From Selenomonadaceae bacterium (GTDB lineage Bacteria; Bacillota; Negativicutes; Selenomonadales; Selenomonadaceae): 64,000 nt of DNA. Location of the stretch: assembly GCA_030523645.1 (NCBI GenBank), contig JAUNIB010000001.1:248001-312000 (forward strand), given 5' to 3'. The position numbers and the translations under genes were made by a program. This document shows, piece by piece, positions 44,591 through 62,169 of the stretch (positions within the stretch are counted from its first letter, which is position 1; each line of letters opens with the position of its first letter). The notes under the pieces are model-generated. The model worked only from the letters and a program-made list of their open reading frames with translations. It did not search any database and was not told the origin of the DNA.

Positions 44591-45343
44591 GTGCCTGTAG
44601 GGGTGGAAATCAAAGAGCGGGCTTGCTGCGGCAAGCCCCTACAACGGCGAGTCTTTACGGGGATAATGAAAAAAATATTCCCGTAAGTCAATAAACACTG
44701 TGTCCTTTGGGATAACGCCTGTAGGGGTCGCCCGCAGGCGACCCGAAAATGATGGAAACCAAAGAACGGGCTTGCTGCGGCAAGCCCCTACAACGGCGAG
44801 TCTTTACGGGGATAATGAAAAAAATATTCCCGTAAGTCAATAAACACTGTGTCCTTTGGGATAACGCCTGTAGGGGTCGCCCGCAGGCGACCCGAAAATG
44901 ATGGAAACCAAAGAACGGGCTTGCTGCGGCAAGCCCCTACAACGGCGAGTCTTTACGGGGATAATGAAAAAAATATTCCCGTAAGTCAATAAACACTGTG
45001 TCCTTTGGGATAACGCCTGTAGGGGTCGCCCGCAGGCGACCCGAAAATGATGGAAACCAAAGAACGGGCTTGCTGCGGCAAGCCCCTACAACGGCGAGTC
45101 TTTACGGGGATAATGCAAAAAATATTCCCGTAAATCAATAAATCCTGTGTCCTATGGGATAACGCCTGTGGGGGTCGCCCGCAGGCGACCCGAAAATGGT
45201 GGAGCCTGAAGAACGGGCTTGCTGCGGCAAGCCCCTACAACGGCGAGTCTTTATGGGGATAATGAAAAAATATTCCTGTAAATCAATAAACACCGTGTCC
45301 TTTGGGATACCGCCTGTAGGGGTCGCCCGCAGGCGACCCGAAA
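44591..45343. repeat. Tandem array of REPIN-containing units, period 149 bp
   Basis: The 803 bp between the floA partner and the RAYT gene. Six units start with CTGTAG at 44595, 44719, 44868, 45017, 45166 and 45314 (spacings 124, 149, 149, 149, 148). Each full unit has a REPIN: REP-a GTAG plus hairpin GGGTCGCC-CGCA-GGCGACCC, a spacer of about 20 bp, and the inverted REP-b GGGCTTGC-TGCG-GCAAGCCC-CTAC. The rest of the unit has a third hairpin (TTACGGGGATA / TATTCCCGTAA). Units 1-3 are nearly identical; unit 0 lacks most of REP-a; the last is a lone REP-a 39 bp before the RAYT start. Confidence 0.92.
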
Positions 45344-45381
45344 TATCCATTGTCGAGGGCGTAACATCAGAGGTGGCAACA

Positions 45382-45831
45382 ATGACTGAACTGCCAAAAC
45401 GAAAAAATATCCGCCTAAATGCAGAGAACTATGCAATGGGTGGATATTTTTTCATTACTGTTTGTGTCCGTGATAGAAAACAAATTTTAGGGACGATAAG
45501 AAATGGAACGACAGAATTAACCGACATAGGAAAGTTAATCGAGGAAGAAATTAATCTGATGTCATCCTATCACGACTCTACAGAAATAGTTGATGTGGTT
45601 ATTATGCCGGACCATGTTCATTTTATTATGCGTTATGAAGGAGCGAAAACACATTTCGGTCGGATTGTTGGCAATATGAAATCTGCCGTTACGAGAAGGT
45701 TGGGATATAGTATTTGGCAGAGAAATTATTATGAACACATTATCCGCAACGAGACAGAATTATTGGAGACTCAGCGTTATATGCAGGATAATCCTTTGCG
45801 TTGGGAATTAAGGTGCAAGGGGTTGGTTTAA
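45382..45831 (+). CDS. REP-associated tyrosine transposase (RAYT, Y1 family)
   Basis: 149 residues, the usual RAYT size. Single-strand HUH-type transposase: HUH motif MPDHVHFIM (His78, His80), candidate catalytic Tyr116/Tyr117 in WQRNYYEHIIRNE, and a C-terminal family signature YMQDNPLRWEL. Homologues act on REP hairpins by cutting near a 5' GTAG. AGAGGTGG lies 6 nt before the ATG at 45382; the frame is open back to 45196 but that part only reads the repeat array. Base composition is visibly AT-richer than the flanking core genes, suggesting horizontal origin. REP sequences flank it on both sides. Confidence 0.93.
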   Translation: MTELPKRKNIRLNAENYAMGGYFFITVCVRDRKQILGTIRNGTTELTDIGKLIEEEINLMSSYHDSTEIVDVVIMPDHVHFIMRYEGAKTHFGRIVGNMKSAVTRRLGYSIWQRNYYEHIIRNETELLETQRYMQDNPLRWELRCKGLV

Positions 45832-45861
45832 GTTTAAGCATTTGAGGAGTAGGCTGTAGTG

Positions 45862-45937
45862 GTTGTAGGGGTCACCTGCAGGCGATCCGAAAGGGTGAAA
45901 ACCGAAGCGCGGGCTTGCTGCGGCAAGCCCCTACAAC
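45862..45937. repeat. REPIN downstream of the RAYT gene
   Basis: Forward REP with GTAG and GGGTCACC-TGCA-GGCGATCC (one G-U type pair), 21-bp spacer, then inverted REP-b GGGCTTGC-TGCG-GCAAGCCC-CTAC, as in the array. With the lone REP-a at 45314 it brackets the RAYT gene with REPs. Confidence 0.88.
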
Positions 45938-45986
45938 TATAACGGCAAGTCGCTGCAGGATGCCAACATAAAATCTATTTGACATA

Positions 45987-46034
45987 AAAACGGCTGTGAA
46001 AAAATGATTGCTCATTTTTTCACAGCCGTTTTTT
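45987..46034. terminator. Bidirectional terminator, GCTGTGAAAAATGA family
   Basis: Perfect 22-bp stem (AAAAACGGCTGTGAAAAAATGA and complement) with loop TTGC, with A and T runs on both sides. Separates the + strand RAYT region from the - strand signalling operon; the stop codon of the receiver gene lies at its edge. Confidence 0.92.
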
Positions 46035-46818
46035 ACGGGTTGAAGAATTTATGGACGGTGGTTTTTACGGCTTCGACACCGTTTGATTTAAGGATGTAGC
46101 CGGCGGGATGGAGGCTCATTACCTGAGTGATGGAGTCACGGTCATTTTTTCCGGTGAGGAAGATGATGGGAAGGTCCGCATAGGTCGGGTCGGCTCTGAG
46201 CATTCTCAGGAGCTGCGGGCCGTCACAGATAGGCATTTCATAGTCCAGGAGGACGAGGTCGGGCTGATCAAGGCAGATATGCTTGATGGCCACGAGGCTG
46301 GAATTGGCTATGTTGACATCATATTCACTGCCCAGCCATGTCTTGATGTTGCGGAGCATGGCACCGGAGTCATCTACCGCCAATATTTTGCGGCGGCGGC
46401 GGTTATTGAGGCTGCCGAGAGCTTCGCACATGCCGGTGACCATTTCGGAGAAGTCGATGGGGCGGGTGAATTCCCGGAGTATAAACTGCTTTGGAATTAT
46501 CTGCTCCAGCTGATAAAGCTCGTCATGCTGATTGGCAAGGACGAAAATACTCAGTCGCCTTTCTGCGGCCTGTTTGCGGAAGGCCTGAAGAGCTTCCGGC
46601 TTGGCCAGCATAGCCGGACTGAGATAAAGGAACAGCACCCGTACATCGGAGCCGGCACGGCGCAGAGCGTCCGGACTGGCAGAGCTGCTTATTACATGGA
46701 ATCCGGCCTCCAGAATTTTTTCTCTGATGGTGATGTTGAGATAGCCCGTACCCTCGGATACGAATAGGACGAGGTAATTGCCGGGGTAGATTTTTTTGAC
46801 CGGCGCGCTTGTGCTCAT
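46033..46818 (-). CDS. Receiver-only response regulator with a degenerate N-terminal receiver
   Basis: 261 residues. The C-terminal half (about 143-261) is a complete REC domain: Asp149-Asp150 (LAVDDSG), phosphoacceptor Asp192 in LLDYEMP, Thr222 (FLTGK) and Lys244 (YILKSNG). The N-terminal half (about 14-135) has REC-like alternation, but the acceptor position reads FLYLSP, Tyr65 in place of Asp, and the acidic pocket is missing. There is no DNA-binding or enzymatic output, so it would act like CheY/Spo0F by protein contact. RBS AAAGGAG before the ATG. Last gene of a three-gene operon, 27 bp after the hybrid kinase. Confidence 0.88.
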   Translation of the reverse strand: MSTSAPVKKIYPGNYLVLFVSEGTGYLNITIREKILEAGFHVISSSASPDALRRAGSDVRVLFLYLSPAMLAKPEALQAFRKQAAERRLSIFVLANQHDELYQLEQIIPKQFILREFTRPIDFSEMVTGMCEALGSLNNRRRRKILAVDDSGAMLRNIKTWLGSEYDVNIANSSLVAIKHICLDQPDLVLLDYEMPICDGPQLLRMLRADPTYADLPIIFLTGKNDRDSITQVMSLHPAGYILKSNGVEAVKTTVHKFFNP

Positions 46819-46845
46819 AGGAATTTGCTCCTTTCAGTTTCTTCT

Positions 46846-49800
46846 TTATTGCAGCTTTTCCAGCAGGCTGTTGACGATATTGGCGGTGCCGTTGGCATCC
46901 ATGTCCGTTACATAGCCTTCCAGTCTGGCGATATCCTTGGCCCAGTCATCCGGCAGTCTGGCACCGGCGATTTGAGCCATTGCATCGTCCATGGCATCCA
47001 TATCAAGTGCGGAGACTGCGTTCCTGAGAGTAATCAGAAGCTCCCGGATGGTCTCGTTGTCCAGATTTTCCTTGGGAATCTCATCGTCCTTCTTCAGAGT
47101 GGCCGCTATACGCTCCTTGTAGGAATAGAACTCAGCTAAAAGAGGCGGAGTTTTCTCCTGTATCAGGTCGGTCTGGAAATTCTTGCCGGCCATCTCCATC
47201 TCGAAGAATTTCTCACCCAAATCCATGGCACCGATTAGGCGTGCGACGCTCTTCATGGCGTGAACCTCAATGGTGTAGCGTGGGATATCTCCCGACTGCA
47301 GGTAGCCTTCTATTTCTTCGCACTTCAGCTCTGCCATTTTCACGAAGTCTTCCAGAAGACCAAGGAAGTTTTTGGCAGTGCCGCAGTTCTTGATACCGAT
47401 AGCGTTGTCTATGCCTTCAATCTTCGGCAGTCCTGCCAGCTCATTGGAAGCAGGCGGCTGGTCCGCTGTCTCCTCATAGCCGCAGTCCGGCTCCTCGCTG
47501 CCGATTGACTGTACATCCTCTTTGGTGGGACGGAGCAGCTTCTCCGGCGGCAGCCAGTTCCGGAGGACGGCGGTTATTTCCTTGCTGTCGATAGGCTTGG
47601 CGACGAAGCCGACCATGCCGGCGGCCATGAACAGGGCTCGGCTCTCGGCAAAGACATTGGCTGTGAGGGCGATGATAGGAACGGTCTTGAAGTACGGCTC
47701 GTCATGGCTCCTGATGATGGAGGTGGTCTCGCAGCCGTCCATGCCCGGCATCATGTGATCCATGAAGATGATGTCGAAGGGCTCGGAGGTTTCCACCAGA
47801 CGGATGGCCTCCGGGCCGCTGTTGGCGGTGGTTATCTGCATACCCAGCGGCTTCAGGAGGCCGCTTGCGACCCGCAGATTCATATCGTTGTCATCGACGA
47901 TGAGAACTCTGACATCGGGGGCAATGAAGGTGAAGGATTCATCCCGCATGACTTCCGCAGTCTCGACAGTCTCCCTGTTCAGCACCTGACAGAAGTTCAT
48001 GGAGTAAAGGGGCTGATTTATAACAATAGCTGCGGGGTCCTGTATGCTGCTGATGAGAGCATTCTGGACGATTACCAGCTGGGTGTGTGCTTTCAGCTCA
48101 TTGCAGAGTTTGCTCTTGCTCTGATAGATGGCGCTGTCCACGAATAGGAAGTCGGGGAAGCGGCCATGGATAGAGAGCTGCCGGATATCTACGAAGCGGA
48201 TGCCGAAGTCACTGGCCAGCTCCCGGAGGAGATTGGTATTGTCGGTAGATGAGAATATTGCGCCGATGGAGGGAGATTTCTCCTTGACGCACTCATTCAG
48301 CGAGGCGGCGGGGGTATCGTCGGCTACGCCCTGAGGGACTGTAAAGTAGAACTCACTGCCCAGACCCTCTTCGCTGCGGACTCCGATAGTACCGCCCATC
48401 AGCTCGACGAGGCGCTTGGAGAGGGCGAGACCGAGGCCGGTGCCTTCCTTGTCGCGGTTCTTGAGATTGTCTACCTGCTGGAAGTCGCTGAAGAGCTTTT
48501 TCAGGTTTTCCTTGCTGATGCCCTGTCCCGTATCAGAGACAGCGGCGTGGAGCAGTATGCCGTTTTCTCCGTTTGGCTCTACCCGGACGGATATCCGGAC
48601 ATAGCCCTTCGCGGTGAACTTGATGGCGTTGTTGGCCAGATTTATCAGTACCTGACGCAGGCGTACTCTGTCGCCTATCAAAACCTGAGGCAGATCCTTG
48701 GCCAGTGAATACTGGAGCTCCACCGGCTTCTCGCCGATACGGCTCAGCAGTATCATGCTCATATCGTTCAGAAGAGACAGGGGCTCATATCGGTCGTTTA
48801 CCAGCTCCATTTTGCCGGACTCTACTTTGGAGAAGTCCAATATCTCGTTGATGATAGCCAGCAGGGAGGTGCCGGCGGTACGGATATTGCCCAGATACTC
48901 CAGCTGCCTTGACAGGGGCTTGTCCCGGAGAAGTATCTCTGTGATGCCGACGATGGCATTCATCGGGGTGCGTATCTCATGGCTCATGTTGGCCAGAAAG
49001 ATGGATTTCGCCCGATTGGCCTGCTCGGCGCGTTCTTTCAGCTGCCTCATCTGCTCGGCCTTCGTTACCATGTCGGTGATGTCCACCAGCGTGATGAAGT
49101 AGCCTTTGTCCACCTGCTCATGGGAGAGATTCTGGAGGCGGGCGCTGTAGGTGCGGCCGGCGATGTTCAGATTGGTGGAGCCGCCGGTGTCATCTATGGC
49201 ACCCTCGGCCAGTATCCATGAGGCCAGCTGCTCCGGCTTCATGTGAGGCAGCAGGATGTCGGCGGCCTTGTTTGAATAGGAGACCCGCATATCCTTGTCC
49301 AGAACTATTACACCTTCGGCAGTGTTTTCGATAACACTGTCCTTCGCGGCCCGGACGATATCATACAGACCGTAGTGAGCGAAGAAAAGGTATTGGATGA
49401 GGCAGTTGGTGAATATTCCTACCGGTACCAGATCATCGGTGATGAGTCGGCTGTTGGTAATGATGACGGGAATGATGACGGTGAACTGAGCCAGCAGGAT
49501 GTGCTTGCAGAGGGTGGCCCGGCTTGGATTGCTGCAGGCCAGATTCTCCCTGTAGCTGATGTAGAGAACATAGAGGGCAGTACACAGCTCCGTGATGAGG
49601 GTGGCGGCTATCAGCAGGTAGCCGATGCCCTTGCCGGTGAGTACGACCTTGGCACCGGGTATCAGTACGGAGTCTGCCAGCCGATAGCCGGTGTAGACAA
49701 GGCTGTGATAGTTGGAGGACAGGATGAGTATCGTGCCGATGAAGGAACCGCCTACCATGAACAGCATCAGCCAGCGGGGCAGCTTATAGGCCAGAAAGCG

Positions 49801-50055
49801 GCAGATGAAAAGAACGCCGAACAGGGCGTACAGGTCTTTGGCCGAGGCCGACAGCTTGCCCAGTGCGTGCATCTCGTGGAGAGTTAGAGCCGTATAGCTG
49901 GAGTTGGTAGCCCAGATTGCTATCGCGCTGAATATCATCAGGATTAGCATGGTACTCTTGAATCCTGAGTCCTCACGGCGGTAAAGGTCAATGAAAACAA
50001 CGGCTGCAATGAGGAGGCAGAGAATGTTGAGGTCGTACCACCAGTTCGTTATCAT
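46846..50055 (-). CDS. Hybrid sensor histidine kinase: 7TM-PAS-HisKA-HATPase-REC-Hpt
   Basis: 1069 residues. Seven or so N-terminal transmembrane helices (HisK_N 7TM-like, about 1-235), a PAS domain, HisKA with phosphoacceptor His359 (NMSHEIRTPMNAI), HATPase_c with N-box NLANNAIKF, G1 SDTGQGI and G2 GTGLGLALSK, a degenerate receiver-like region (about 590-700), a full REC (LIVDDND, Asp766 in FMDHMMPG, Lys in AKPID) and a C-terminal Hpt with His932 (VHAMKSVARLIGA). All phosphorelay residues are present. RBS GGAGGTGA. The start overlaps the stop of the upstream pseudokinase by 4 bp. Confidence 0.93.
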   Translation of the reverse strand: MITNWWYDLNILCLLIAAVVFIDLYRREDSGFKSTMLILMIFSAIAIWATNSSYTALTLHEMHALGKLSASAKDLYALFGVLFICRFLAYKLPRWLMLFMVGGSFIGTILILSSNYHSLVYTGYRLADSVLIPGAKVVLTGKGIGYLLIAATLITELCTALYVLYISYRENLACSNPSRATLCKHILLAQFTVIIPVIITNSRLITDDLVPVGIFTNCLIQYLFFAHYGLYDIVRAAKDSVIENTAEGVIVLDKDMRVSYSNKAADILLPHMKPEQLASWILAEGAIDDTGGSTNLNIAGRTYSARLQNLSHEQVDKGYFITLVDITDMVTKAEQMRQLKERAEQANRAKSIFLANMSHEIRTPMNAIVGITEILLRDKPLSRQLEYLGNIRTAGTSLLAIINEILDFSKVESGKMELVNDRYEPLSLLNDMSMILLSRIGEKPVELQYSLAKDLPQVLIGDRVRLRQVLINLANNAIKFTAKGYVRISVRVEPNGENGILLHAAVSDTGQGISKENLKKLFSDFQQVDNLKNRDKEGTGLGLALSKRLVELMGGTIGVRSEEGLGSEFYFTVPQGVADDTPAASLNECVKEKSPSIGAIFSSTDNTNLLRELASDFGIRFVDIRQLSIHGRFPDFLFVDSAIYQSKSKLCNELKAHTQLVIVQNALISSIQDPAAIVINQPLYSMNFCQVLNRETVETAEVMRDESFTFIAPDVRVLIVDDNDMNLRVASGLLKPLGMQITTANSGPEAIRLVETSEPFDIIFMDHMMPGMDGCETTSIIRSHDEPYFKTVPIIALTANVFAESRALFMAAGMVGFVAKPIDSKEITAVLRNWLPPEKLLRPTKEDVQSIGSEEPDCGYEETADQPPASNELAGLPKIEGIDNAIGIKNCGTAKNFLGLLEDFVKMAELKCEEIEGYLQSGDIPRYTIEVHAMKSVARLIGAMDLGEKFFEMEMAGKNFQTDLIQEKTPPLLAEFYSYKERIAATLKKDDEIPKENLDNETIRELLITLRNAVSALDMDAMDDAMAQIAGARLPDDWAKDIARLEGYVTDMDANGTANIVNSLLEKLQ

Positions 50056-54301: not shown

Positions 54302-54383
54302 CTGTAGGGGGCGCCTGCAGGCGCCCCGAAATAAAGGGTGTCCTTTGTCCGACAGCGGGGCGGCTGCGGCCGCCCCCTACAAC
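54302..54383. repeat. REPIN with divergent stems
   Basis: In the 485-bp gap between the 5'-nucleotidase and the transporter. Forward REP: GTAG then GGGGCGCC-TGCA-GGCGCCCC. Inverted REP: GGGGCGGC-TGCG-GCCGCCCC then CTAC. Spacer about 27 bp. The stems differ from those of the array but are fully paired; GTAG and the YGCA loop are kept. Confidence 0.85.
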
Positions 54384-54404
54384 AGCAAGTCCGTACAAAG
54401 ATTT

Positions 54405-54514
54405 CACCCCTCAGTCAGCTTCGCTGACAGCTCCCCTAAATGGGAGCCTTTTGGGGACACGGCGACGCCTAAAAGCCTCCCTTCTAGGGGAGGTGCCCGA
54501 AGGGCGGAGGGGTG
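54405..54514. repeat. Inverted pair of double-hairpin elements
   Basis: CACCCCTC...GAGGGGTG termini. Left half (reverse): hairpins TCAGC-TTC-GCTGA and GGCTCCCATTT-type; right half (forward): CCTCCC-TTCT-AGGGGAGG then GCCC-GAA-GGGC. Same pattern as the elements in the suf gap and at the window end. Open frames through it are repeat artefacts. The remaining 150 bp up to the transporter hold a weak promoter-like pair (TTGTAA 54595, GATACT 54618) and nothing else seen. Confidence 0.7.
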
Positions 54515-54668
54515 AGTGTCCGCCCTGGCATTCAGGGAGGACGCATAAGTAATAAGAACGCTGGACAAATACCGATGCACAGGGTACAATTCACTTGTAA
54601 AGACCGGAATCAATCTGGATACTTCCATAATAAAGATGATACATTTAAAGAGAGAAAAGAGGATAGCT

Positions 54669-60853: not shown

Positions 60854-61713
60854 TGGAACAAAAGAATAACAGCATCGTCTATACTGAAATACCGATGCGC
60901 ACCTGGCGGTGGCTGGGTGTCAACGAAGGCAGAATAAGTGCCGACCTTCTCTCACGGCTCCCCATGAGAGGCAGAATATATGTGAAGCCGGGAATGACTG
61001 ATTCTCAGGTTCATGTCTGCCGCAAAAGTGACAGAGAGATATGTCAGGTTGCGGTAGGGGCGAATGCGAACTGCACCGTTACCAATATAGTGCTGGCTCC
61101 CGATGATGCCGATTGGGCAGGGGCTATGAAGATACGAGTGGATGCCGGCGGTCATGTTCAGGCCAATGTCATCCATCTGGGGGGTAAGAACACTCTCTGC
61201 TCGGTGGAGATAGAGCTGGTAGGCGACGACAGTTCGGCTGAGCTGAATGCCCTCTACTTCGCTGCCGATGAAGAAAAGTATGATATGAATTTCATCATCC
61301 GGCAGATGGGCAAGCGTACCGATGCCAAGATGAATGTCTACGGTGCTCTGGGCGGCAATGCGGATAAGATTTTCCGCGGCACCCTTGACTTCGTACAGGG
61401 CTGCTCCGGCTCCGTGGGCAACGAAAAGGAAGAAATAATTCTCCTGTCCGATGGCGTCCGCAACCGTACTGTACCCCTCATGCTGTCCGGAGAGGACGAT
61501 GTGGACGGCCATCATGCCGCCAGCATCGGCCGTATGGACGAGGAGAAGCTCTTCTACCTCATGAGCCGCGGTCTTGATGAAGAGGAGGCAAAGCGCCTTG
61601 TGCTGGAGGCCACCTTTGCTCCTGTAGTGAGCCTCATCGAGGATGAAGAATTGAAATCTGAGGTCGAGGAGGCTATCAACCGTAAGGTAGCCAAGTGCCT
61701 CGGCAACATATAA
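60853..61713 (+). CDS. sufD: SufD-type Fe-S assembly subunit (short form)
   Basis: 286 residues. C-terminal part has the SufB/SufD hallmark (VDGHHAASIGRMDEEKLFYL, SRGLDEEEAKRLVLEATFAP). Typical SufD is about 400-440 residues; this one lacks much of the N-terminal helical region but its beta-helix core and end appear intact. Position after sufB supports the SufD role. Translation coupled to sufB. Followed by a 456-bp repeat-filled gap before sufS. Confidence 0.88.
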   Translation: MEQKNNSIVYTEIPMRTWRWLGVNEGRISADLLSRLPMRGRIYVKPGMTDSQVHVCRKSDREICQVAVGANANCTVTNIVLAPDDADWAGAMKIRVDAGGHVQANVIHLGGKNTLCSVEIELVGDDSSAELNALYFAADEEKYDMNFIIRQMGKRTDAKMNVYGALGGNADKIFRGTLDFVQGCSGSVGNEKEEIILLSDGVRNRTVPLMLSGEDDVDGHHAASIGRMDEEKLFYLMSRGLDEEEAKRLVLEATFAPVVSLIEDEELKSEVEEAINRKVAKCLGNI

Positions 61714-61725
61714 TCCGTCTAATAA

Positions 61726-61773
61726 CCCTCTCCTATGGAGAGGGGGGACCGGCGAAGCCGGTGGGTGAGGTTA
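61726..61773 (+). repeat. Double-hairpin element, forward
   Basis: Hairpin CTCTCC-TAT-GGAGAG, then GGGGGACC, hairpin GGC-GAA-GCC flanked by CC/GG, then GGTGGGTGAGGTTA. Begins 12 bp after sufD. Confidence 0.7.
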
Positions 61774-61811
61774 GCGTATACAACCTCCTGCTGGATTGCC
61801 AGCGGCTGTGT

Positions 61812-61860
61812 CCTCCCTGCTTGCAGGGAGGGGGACCATGCGCAGCATGGTGGAGGGTAA
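61812..61860 (+). repeat. Double-hairpin element, forward, variant stems
   Basis: Hairpin CTCCCTGC-TT-GCAGGGAG, then GGGGACC, hairpin ATGC-GCA-GCAT, then GGTGGAGGGTAA. Same architecture as the element at 61726 with different but paired stems. Confidence 0.7.
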
Positions 61861-61880
61861 GAGAAAAAGACAAACTTAAT

Positions 61881-61928
61881 TAACCCACCACCGCCTAGCG
61901 GCGGTCCCCCGCCCTTGAAAAGGGCGGA
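61881..61928 (-). repeat. Double-hairpin element, reverse
   Basis: On the - strand: hairpin CCGCCCTT-TTC-AAGGGCGG, then GGGACC, hairpin GCCGC-TA-GGCGG-type, then TGGTGGGTTA. Confidence 0.68.
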
Positions 61929-61954
61929 CTGTAAAAAATACTATAATCCATCCA

Positions 61955-61978
61955 GGGTCGCCTGCGGGCGACCCCTAC
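61955..61978 (-). repeat. Single REP sequence
   Basis: Read on the - strand: GTAG then GGGTCGCC-CGCA-GGCGACCC, identical to REP-a of the array 17 kb away. No inverted partner, so a solo REP. Confidence 0.85.
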
Positions 61979-61995
61979 CGTCAATAACCTCAAGG

Positions 61996-62099
61996 CCCCC
62001 ATTCAGGGGGGCTGTCGCCGTAGGCGACTGAGGGGTAATAGCTAAAAGAAGCCTGTATTTACCCCTCCGCCCTTCGGGCACCTCCCCTGGAGGGGAGGC
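61996..62099. repeat. Facing pair of double-hairpin elements
   Basis: Forward half: CCCCC-ATTCA-GGGGG, GTCGCC-GTA-GGCGAC, GAGGGGTAA. Reverse half: TTACCCCTC, GCCC-TTC-GGGC, CCTCCCCT-GG-AGGGGAGG. Half-site order is opposite to that at 54405-54514. Together with the preceding elements it accounts for nearly all of the 61714-62169 gap; no gene or clear sufS promoter was found there. Confidence 0.68.
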
Positions 62100-62169
62100 T
62101 TTCAGGTAACGACGCTCTTAACCGTCCCCAGAGGGGAAGGTATTTATAACATACAAGTGAAGTGATAAC

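What the first reader, a model, noticed from the sequence alone, without database searches (positions are those of the whole stretch)
45314..45937. RAYT transposase gene bracketed by REPs and adjoining a REPIN array
Seen: a 149-residue Y1 HUH protein (His78/His80, Tyr116/117) with a solo REP-a 39 bp upstream and a REPIN 31 bp downstream; each REP has GTAG directly 5' of the hairpin. Known: RAYTs of Proteobacteria recognise GTAG-tagged REP hairpins. A complete RAYT-REP pair in a Firmicute-type genome is less documented, and this one has REPs at three further sites in the window (54302, 61955, 45862).
Basis: partly seen in the sequence, partly recalled or inferred. Interest (0 to 1): 0.68.

Follow-up and report, generated by a model that had tools for sequence, protein, structure and literature searches.

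The report
Ordinary REP/RAYT pair in a Selenomonadaceae genome
A bacterium of the Selenomonadaceae carries one copy of a small single-strand DNA-cutting enzyme gene together with about 60-70 scattered copies of the short hairpins it probably recognises; this is a well-known kind of domesticated transposon system, and it proves to be fairly common in Firmicutes.

Summary
Window 45382-45831 encodes a 149-aa Y1 HUH protein, the only such gene in the 2.3-Mb genome. Hairpins of the form GTAG-GGGN5-YGCA-N5CCC number 13 in the window and 57 in the genome, against 0 for the reversed control; a covariance model finds about 70. The catalytic tyrosine is Y133 (YMQDNP), not Y116/117. The 'solo' REP upstream is the last half-unit of a five-copy, 149-bp tandem REPIN array (44604-45343).

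The protein falls in the widespread RAYT/TnpAREP clade with YIxNNP/WQ motifs and 'GTAGGGG' hairpins, published subclass 2.4 (RAYT group 4). Of 80 relatives, 75 have such hairpins beside or inside the gene. The clade occurs in 27 of 398 sampled genomes of the same phylum, and 22 of 30 fetched loci have GTAG hairpins. The Firmicute pairing is therefore not exceptional.

A second Selenomonadaceae genome (G005) has a 45%-identical RAYT with 42 REPs of a different loop (GGTG) that is absent here, which supports cognate pairing. Three REPIN sites are empty in the sister species. This is a new member of a known kind.

The parts
45382..45831 (+). tnpAREP/RAYT gene, 149 aa; H78/H80, W112-Q113, E118-H119, R122, Y133, N137-P138
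44604..45343 (.). tandem array, period 149, five copies, each unit one 71-bp REPIN plus a 78-bp spacer; the first and last REPIN are incomplete
44619..44642 (-). REP-b (GTAGGGGCTTGCCGCAGCAAGCCC), right half of the truncated first REPIN of the array
44721..44791 (.). REPIN 1 (REP-a + / REP-b -)
44870..44940 (.). REPIN 2
45019..45089 (.). REPIN 3
45168..45238 (.). REPIN 4 (left REP has GTGG)
45316..45339 (+). REP-a, left half of the last array unit, 42 bp before the RAYT start codon
45865..45934 (.). REPIN downstream of the RAYT; left REP degenerate, right REP-b intact
54304..54380 (.). dispersed REPIN (REP-a type / REP-c type)
61955..61978 (-). dispersed single REP-a

Best explanation
This is a REPtron: a single-copy RAYT (TnpAREP, most likely subclass 2.4 / group 4) with its own REP/REPIN population. 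The likely mechanism, inferred from E. coli and S. maltophilia TnpAREP, is as follows. The protein, probably a dimer, binds the REP hairpin in single-stranded DNA such as the lagging-strand template. It uses the 5' GTAG as a guide through W112/Q113/E118/H119/R122, and the tip loop YGCA as an identity mark. Y133, with a metal held by H78/H80, cuts at a pyrimidine-T step next to GTAG and rejoins the ends. REPINs of 70-77 bp (REP-a, spacer, REP-b or REP-c) are thereby spread or amplified in intergenic DNA. The 149-bp tandem array beside the gene probably arose by local re-duplication of one REPIN plus its flank. Shown: sequence and predicted fold, genome-wide population, covarying stems, exclusive loop pairing in two genomes, empty sites in the sister species. 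Inferred: cleavage, mobility and present-day activity.
For: Only Y1 gene in the genome. Best solved relative is 4er8, E. coli TnpAREP with a REP hairpin, and the AlphaFold model (pLDDT 91.8) matches it with TMq 0.69, the best TMq among the listed PDB hits. NCBIfam REP_Tyr_transpos scores 75.7 bits, just under the cut-off of 80. HUH, WQ, EH, R and YxxxNP residues are invariant in 39 relatives. 57 strict REPs at 28 sites, control 0; about 70 by covariance model; stem covariation. 75 of 80 relatives have GTAGGG hairpins beside or in the gene, where chance gives about 0-0.5 per locus. G005: RAYT 45% identical, 42 REPs with loop GGTG, 0 of these in G000; its genus-mate G033 has neither. 149 of the 150 other family genomes sampled have no strict YGCA REP. 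Three REPIN sites are empty in G001 between conserved flanks. CT or TT stands directly 5' of GTAG in 41 of 53 REPs; E. coli and S. maltophilia enzymes cut at CT (PMC8266576).
Against: G001 (same genus, 83% complete) keeps 4 strict REPs (9 by model) with no cognate RAYT found. G113 has 18 GTAGGGGC...GCCC hairpins without a RAYT in the stretches fetched. So GTAG hairpins alone do not prove a RAYT. No biochemical or transposition evidence for this subclass was found in the papers read. The intergenic regions compared with G001 have diverged heavily, so 'empty site' could also mean loss in G001.
Confidence: 0.9

Rival explanations
1. An IS200/IS605-like insertion sequence: the Y1 protein is an autonomous transposase and the hairpins are its ends or decayed copies.
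For: Same HUH fold; ISDra2 TnpA has a comparable Foldseek E-value.
Against: Single copy; Y...NP instead of Y...Q; the IS200 model scores far below its cut-off (21.1 vs 55 bits); no neighbouring tnpB among the ORFs listed; hairpins spread as 70-77-bp pairs without the gene.
Confidence: 0.03
2. The hairpins are transcription terminators or RNA-stabilising elements kept for that use, and the RAYT is a bystander.
For: REPs lie mostly outside long ORFs (37 of 53, background about 22% outside), and the two strands fold equally well.
Against: A conserved 5' GTAG outside the stem is not needed for a terminator, and there is no T-run. Loop identity follows the RAYT lineage. YGCA REPs are absent from 149 of the 150 other family genomes sampled.
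Confidence: 0.05
3. The pair is a relic: the RAYT is no longer active and the REPs are being lost.
For: The REPIN next to the gene is degenerate on one side and the population is modest.
Against: 45 of 57 strict REPs belong to two identical sequence classes. The gene is intact with all catalytic residues. Sites differ between species.
Confidence: 0.15

Closest known systems
TnpAREP/RAYT subclass 2.4 (= RAYT group 4), PMC6006769
   Same: WQ and YIxNNP motifs; long canonical REPs whose stem foot is three G-C pairs with 5' GTAG; scattered over many phyla; one gene with its own REP family. Nearest relatives in sequence are of this type.
   Different: DHVH instead of the usual NH[IFV]H; only 149 aa, with none of the variable insert or internal REP between the HUH and W motifs (34 residues here, 46-80 in most relatives).
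E. coli TnpAREP (4er8), subclass 2.2 / group 2
   Same: Fold, HUH, guide-binding W/Q/E/H/R positions, Y in YxxxNP; single gene beside REP pairs.
   Different: E. coli REPs are longer with a bulge; here 8-bp stems without a bulge. No long C-terminal tail.
S. maltophilia REPtron Sm, group 3 (PMC8266576)
   Same: 8-bp perfect stem directly after GTAG; loop bases matter there, and the loop is a conserved part here.
   Different: 3-nt loop there, 4-nt YGCA here; different RAYT clade.
RAYT/REP pair of uncultured Selenomonadaceae CAMCDL010000114 (G005, L034)
   Same: Sister RAYT (SH-aLRT 94), same compact form, 8-bp stems on GTAG.
   Different: 45% identity; REP loop GGTG instead of YGCA; no exchange of REP types between the two genomes.

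Membership tests
RAYT / TnpAREP (class 2 TnpAY1) | Y1 HUH fold with HuH and Y...NP motif | tested here: met
   DHVH and YMQDNP
RAYT / TnpAREP (class 2 TnpAY1) | single or low copy number, not an IS | tested here: met
   one PF01797 match in the whole genome
RAYT / TnpAREP (class 2 TnpAY1) | gene flanked by REPs that are repeated through the genome | tested here: met
RAYT / TnpAREP (class 2 TnpAY1) | NCBIfam REP_Tyr_transpos at or above the curated cut-off | tested here: inconclusive
   75.7 bits against a cut-off of 80; best-matching family by far
RAYT / TnpAREP (class 2 TnpAY1) | binds and cleaves single-stranded REP in a GTAG-dependent way | not testable with these tools
   guide-contact residues conserved, no biochemistry
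subclass 2.4 / RAYT group 4 | WQ and YIxNNP motifs, canonical long REP with three G-C pairs at the foot | tested here: met
   WQ and YMQDNP, with I replaced by M; GTAG-GGG...CCC
subclass 2.4 / RAYT group 4 | placement in a tree with reference members of the subclass | tested here: inconclusive
   groups with relatives that show 2.4 hallmarks, but no labelled reference set was available, and subclass 2.7 ([ND]HVH, WQ, YI[LR][NQ]NP) is not excluded
subclass 2.4 / RAYT group 4 | variable insert or in-frame REP between HUH and W motifs | tested here: not met
   34-residue spacing, no REP in the gene; described as predominant, not universal, in PMC6006769
REPIN | two inverted REPs at short fixed spacing, dispersed as a unit | tested here: met
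   18 distinct REPINs of 70-77 bp with a conserved inner spacer
IS200/IS605 | Y...Q motif, several near-identical copies | tested here: not met

The most novel reading that the evidence does not exclude
The REPIN here is a two-ended element: the left REP is always of the TCGCC/GCGCC type, mostly followed by GAAA, and the right REP is always of the CTTGC or GCGGC type, mostly followed by GC. A compact RAYT without the usual insert might treat the two ends differently, as IS200-type transposases treat left and right ends, so that REPINs move as polar units.
Probability: 0.15. Interest if true: 0.4.

Novelty: new member of a known kind. Interest (0 to 1): 0.22.

Why it matters
It adds well-supported RAYT/REP pairs from the Selenomonadaceae, and shows that this RAYT clade with GTAG hairpins is in roughly 7% of sampled genomes of the same phylum (27 of 398, which includes the window genome), a group that the 2013 GTAG survey did not list. 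The two Selenomonadaceae pairs with exclusive loops (YGCA, GGTG) would make a convenient test of which RAYT residues read the hairpin loop.

Tried and rejected
IS200 transposase: rejected on motif, copy number and model score. Tyr116/117 as nucleophile: rejected by alignment to 4er8. Independent 'solo' REP upstream: rejected, since it is in register with the tandem array. Clean orthologous empty site for the RAYT locus itself: not obtained. G001 contigs C55 and C30 both end there in a different tandem repeat, and the two-component genes next to the RAYT (46033-50055) gave no match in G001. Shared REP at 54304 between G000 and G001: both have a REP in that intergenic region, but the alignment does not put them at the same position. 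The careful maximum-likelihood tree did not finish; the quick tree is used.

Full report
What is there. The ORF at 45382-45831 (+) encodes 149 aa with a Pfam Y1_Tnp match over its cut-off. It is the only match to that family in the 2.3-Mb genome. NCBIfam's REP-associated tyrosine transposase model is the best family, at 75.7 bits against a cut-off of 80. Among solved structures the best sequence match is 4er8, E. coli TnpAREP bound to a REP hairpin. The AlphaFold model (mean pLDDT 91.8) matches 4er8 with TMq 0.69, and IS200/IS605 transposases with TMq 0.52-0.58. The alignment puts H78 and H80 in the HUH motif, W112-Q113, E118, H119 and R122 at the GTAG-guide contacts known from E. coli (PMC6006769), and Y133 of YMQDNP at the catalytic tyrosine of the YxxxNP motif.

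REPs and REPINs. The pattern GTAG-GGGN5-YGCA-N5CCC occurs 13 times in the window (0 in 100 shuffles) and 57 times in the genome, at 28 sites (0 for the reversed control). A covariance model finds about 70, counting degenerate copies. Stem pairs covary. Eighteen distinct pairs form units of 70-77 bp: a left REP (TCGCC or GCGCC stem) mostly followed by GAAATAAAGG, a short spacer often ending in GACAGC, and a right REP (CTTGC or GCGGC stem) in the opposite orientation. CT or TT stands directly before GTAG in 41 of 53 REPs. The E. coli and S. maltophilia enzymes cut at CT (PMC8266576), so this is a plausible cleavage step, but that is inference. REPs lie mostly outside ORFs of 100 codons or more.

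Array. Upstream of the gene is a tandem array with period 149 and five copies at 44604-45343: four full REPINs, a truncated one at the left end, and a last left half (45316-45339) that stands 42 bp before the start codon. The 'solo REP' is thus the end of the array. A REPIN with a degenerate left REP follows the gene at 45865-45934. REP dimers reiterated in tandem with flanking DNA are described for other genomes (PMC3733652).

Specificity and distribution. In 150 other genomes of the family only the same-genus G001 has strict REPs (4). The covariance model finds 9 there. No cognate RAYT was found in that 83%-complete genome; its one Y1 protein is of a different type (NHVH, YILNNP). G005, in another genus of the family (its contig is deposited as uncultured Selenomonadaceae), has a 45%-identical RAYT with REPs on both sides and 42 copies of GTAGGGGN5GGTGN5CCC, a loop type with 0 copies in G000 and in G033, the RAYT-less genus-mate of G005. 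This exclusive pairing supports the idea that each RAYT reads its own hairpin. At three G000 REPIN sites the sister species G001 has conserved flanking genes and no REPIN, consistent with insertion after the species split, although loss is not excluded.

Not rare in Firmicutes. Of 80 relatives from many phyla, 75 have GTAGGG hairpins within 1.2 kb or inside the gene, including five from Clostridia, Oscillospiraceae or Eubacteriales (L040, L043, L064, L086, L097). A profile search of 398 genomes of the same phylum found the clade in 27, and 22 of 30 fetched loci (one of them the window's own) have GTAGGG or GTGGGG hairpins, some also in tandem. In-frame REPs between the HUH and W motifs, the hallmark of subclass 2.4 in PMC6006769, are common among the relatives and absent here. 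This protein and its sister L034 are the compact form.

Verdict. It is a RAYT with its REP/REPIN population, most likely subclass 2.4 (group 4), in a Selenomonadaceae genome. The kind is known and the taxonomic setting is less documented in the papers held, but not exceptional on these data. From the papers read, how REPINs move is still unproven, and nothing here settles it.

Noticed in passing
window 54403-54516 and about 61700-62110; G001 many contigs: Another dispersed repeat family (50-150 bp, e.g. ACCCCTCAGTCAGCTTCGCTGACAGCTCCCCT) with dozens of copies in the sister species G001. It accounts for much of the intergenic turnover there.
   Followed up: partly
G001 C55:1-300 and C30:25350-25509 (L214, L215): At the contig ends next to the orthologue of the RAYT site, G001 has a different tandem repeat (unit ...GAAACCTCATCCGTCCTCGCTACGCTCGGCCACCTTCCCC...), as if this intergenic spot attracts repeat arrays.
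   Followed up: partly
G113 (family genome), e.g. L264:4835 and 5023, L267:3092 and 3289: 18 GTAGGGGC...GCCC hairpins, often as convergent pairs 110-200 bp apart, with no RAYT relative in the 61 kb fetched. Possibly a MITE or another REP type.
   Followed up: partly
window 45196-45831: The RAYT frame stays open upstream through REP-a (211-aa ORF), so a longer protein reading through the REP is formally possible, but the ATG at 45382 has a plausible ribosome-binding site (AGAGGTGG).
   Followed up: no
window 45986-46033: Perfect 22-bp inverted repeat just after the downstream REPIN, at the 3' end of the convergent response-regulator gene; a likely bidirectional terminator.
   Followed up: no
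L239 (1075-2243), L249, L257: Other Bacillota RAYT loci with tandem REP/REPIN arrays beside the gene (e.g. period 196 in L239), similar to the 149-bp array here.
   Followed up: no
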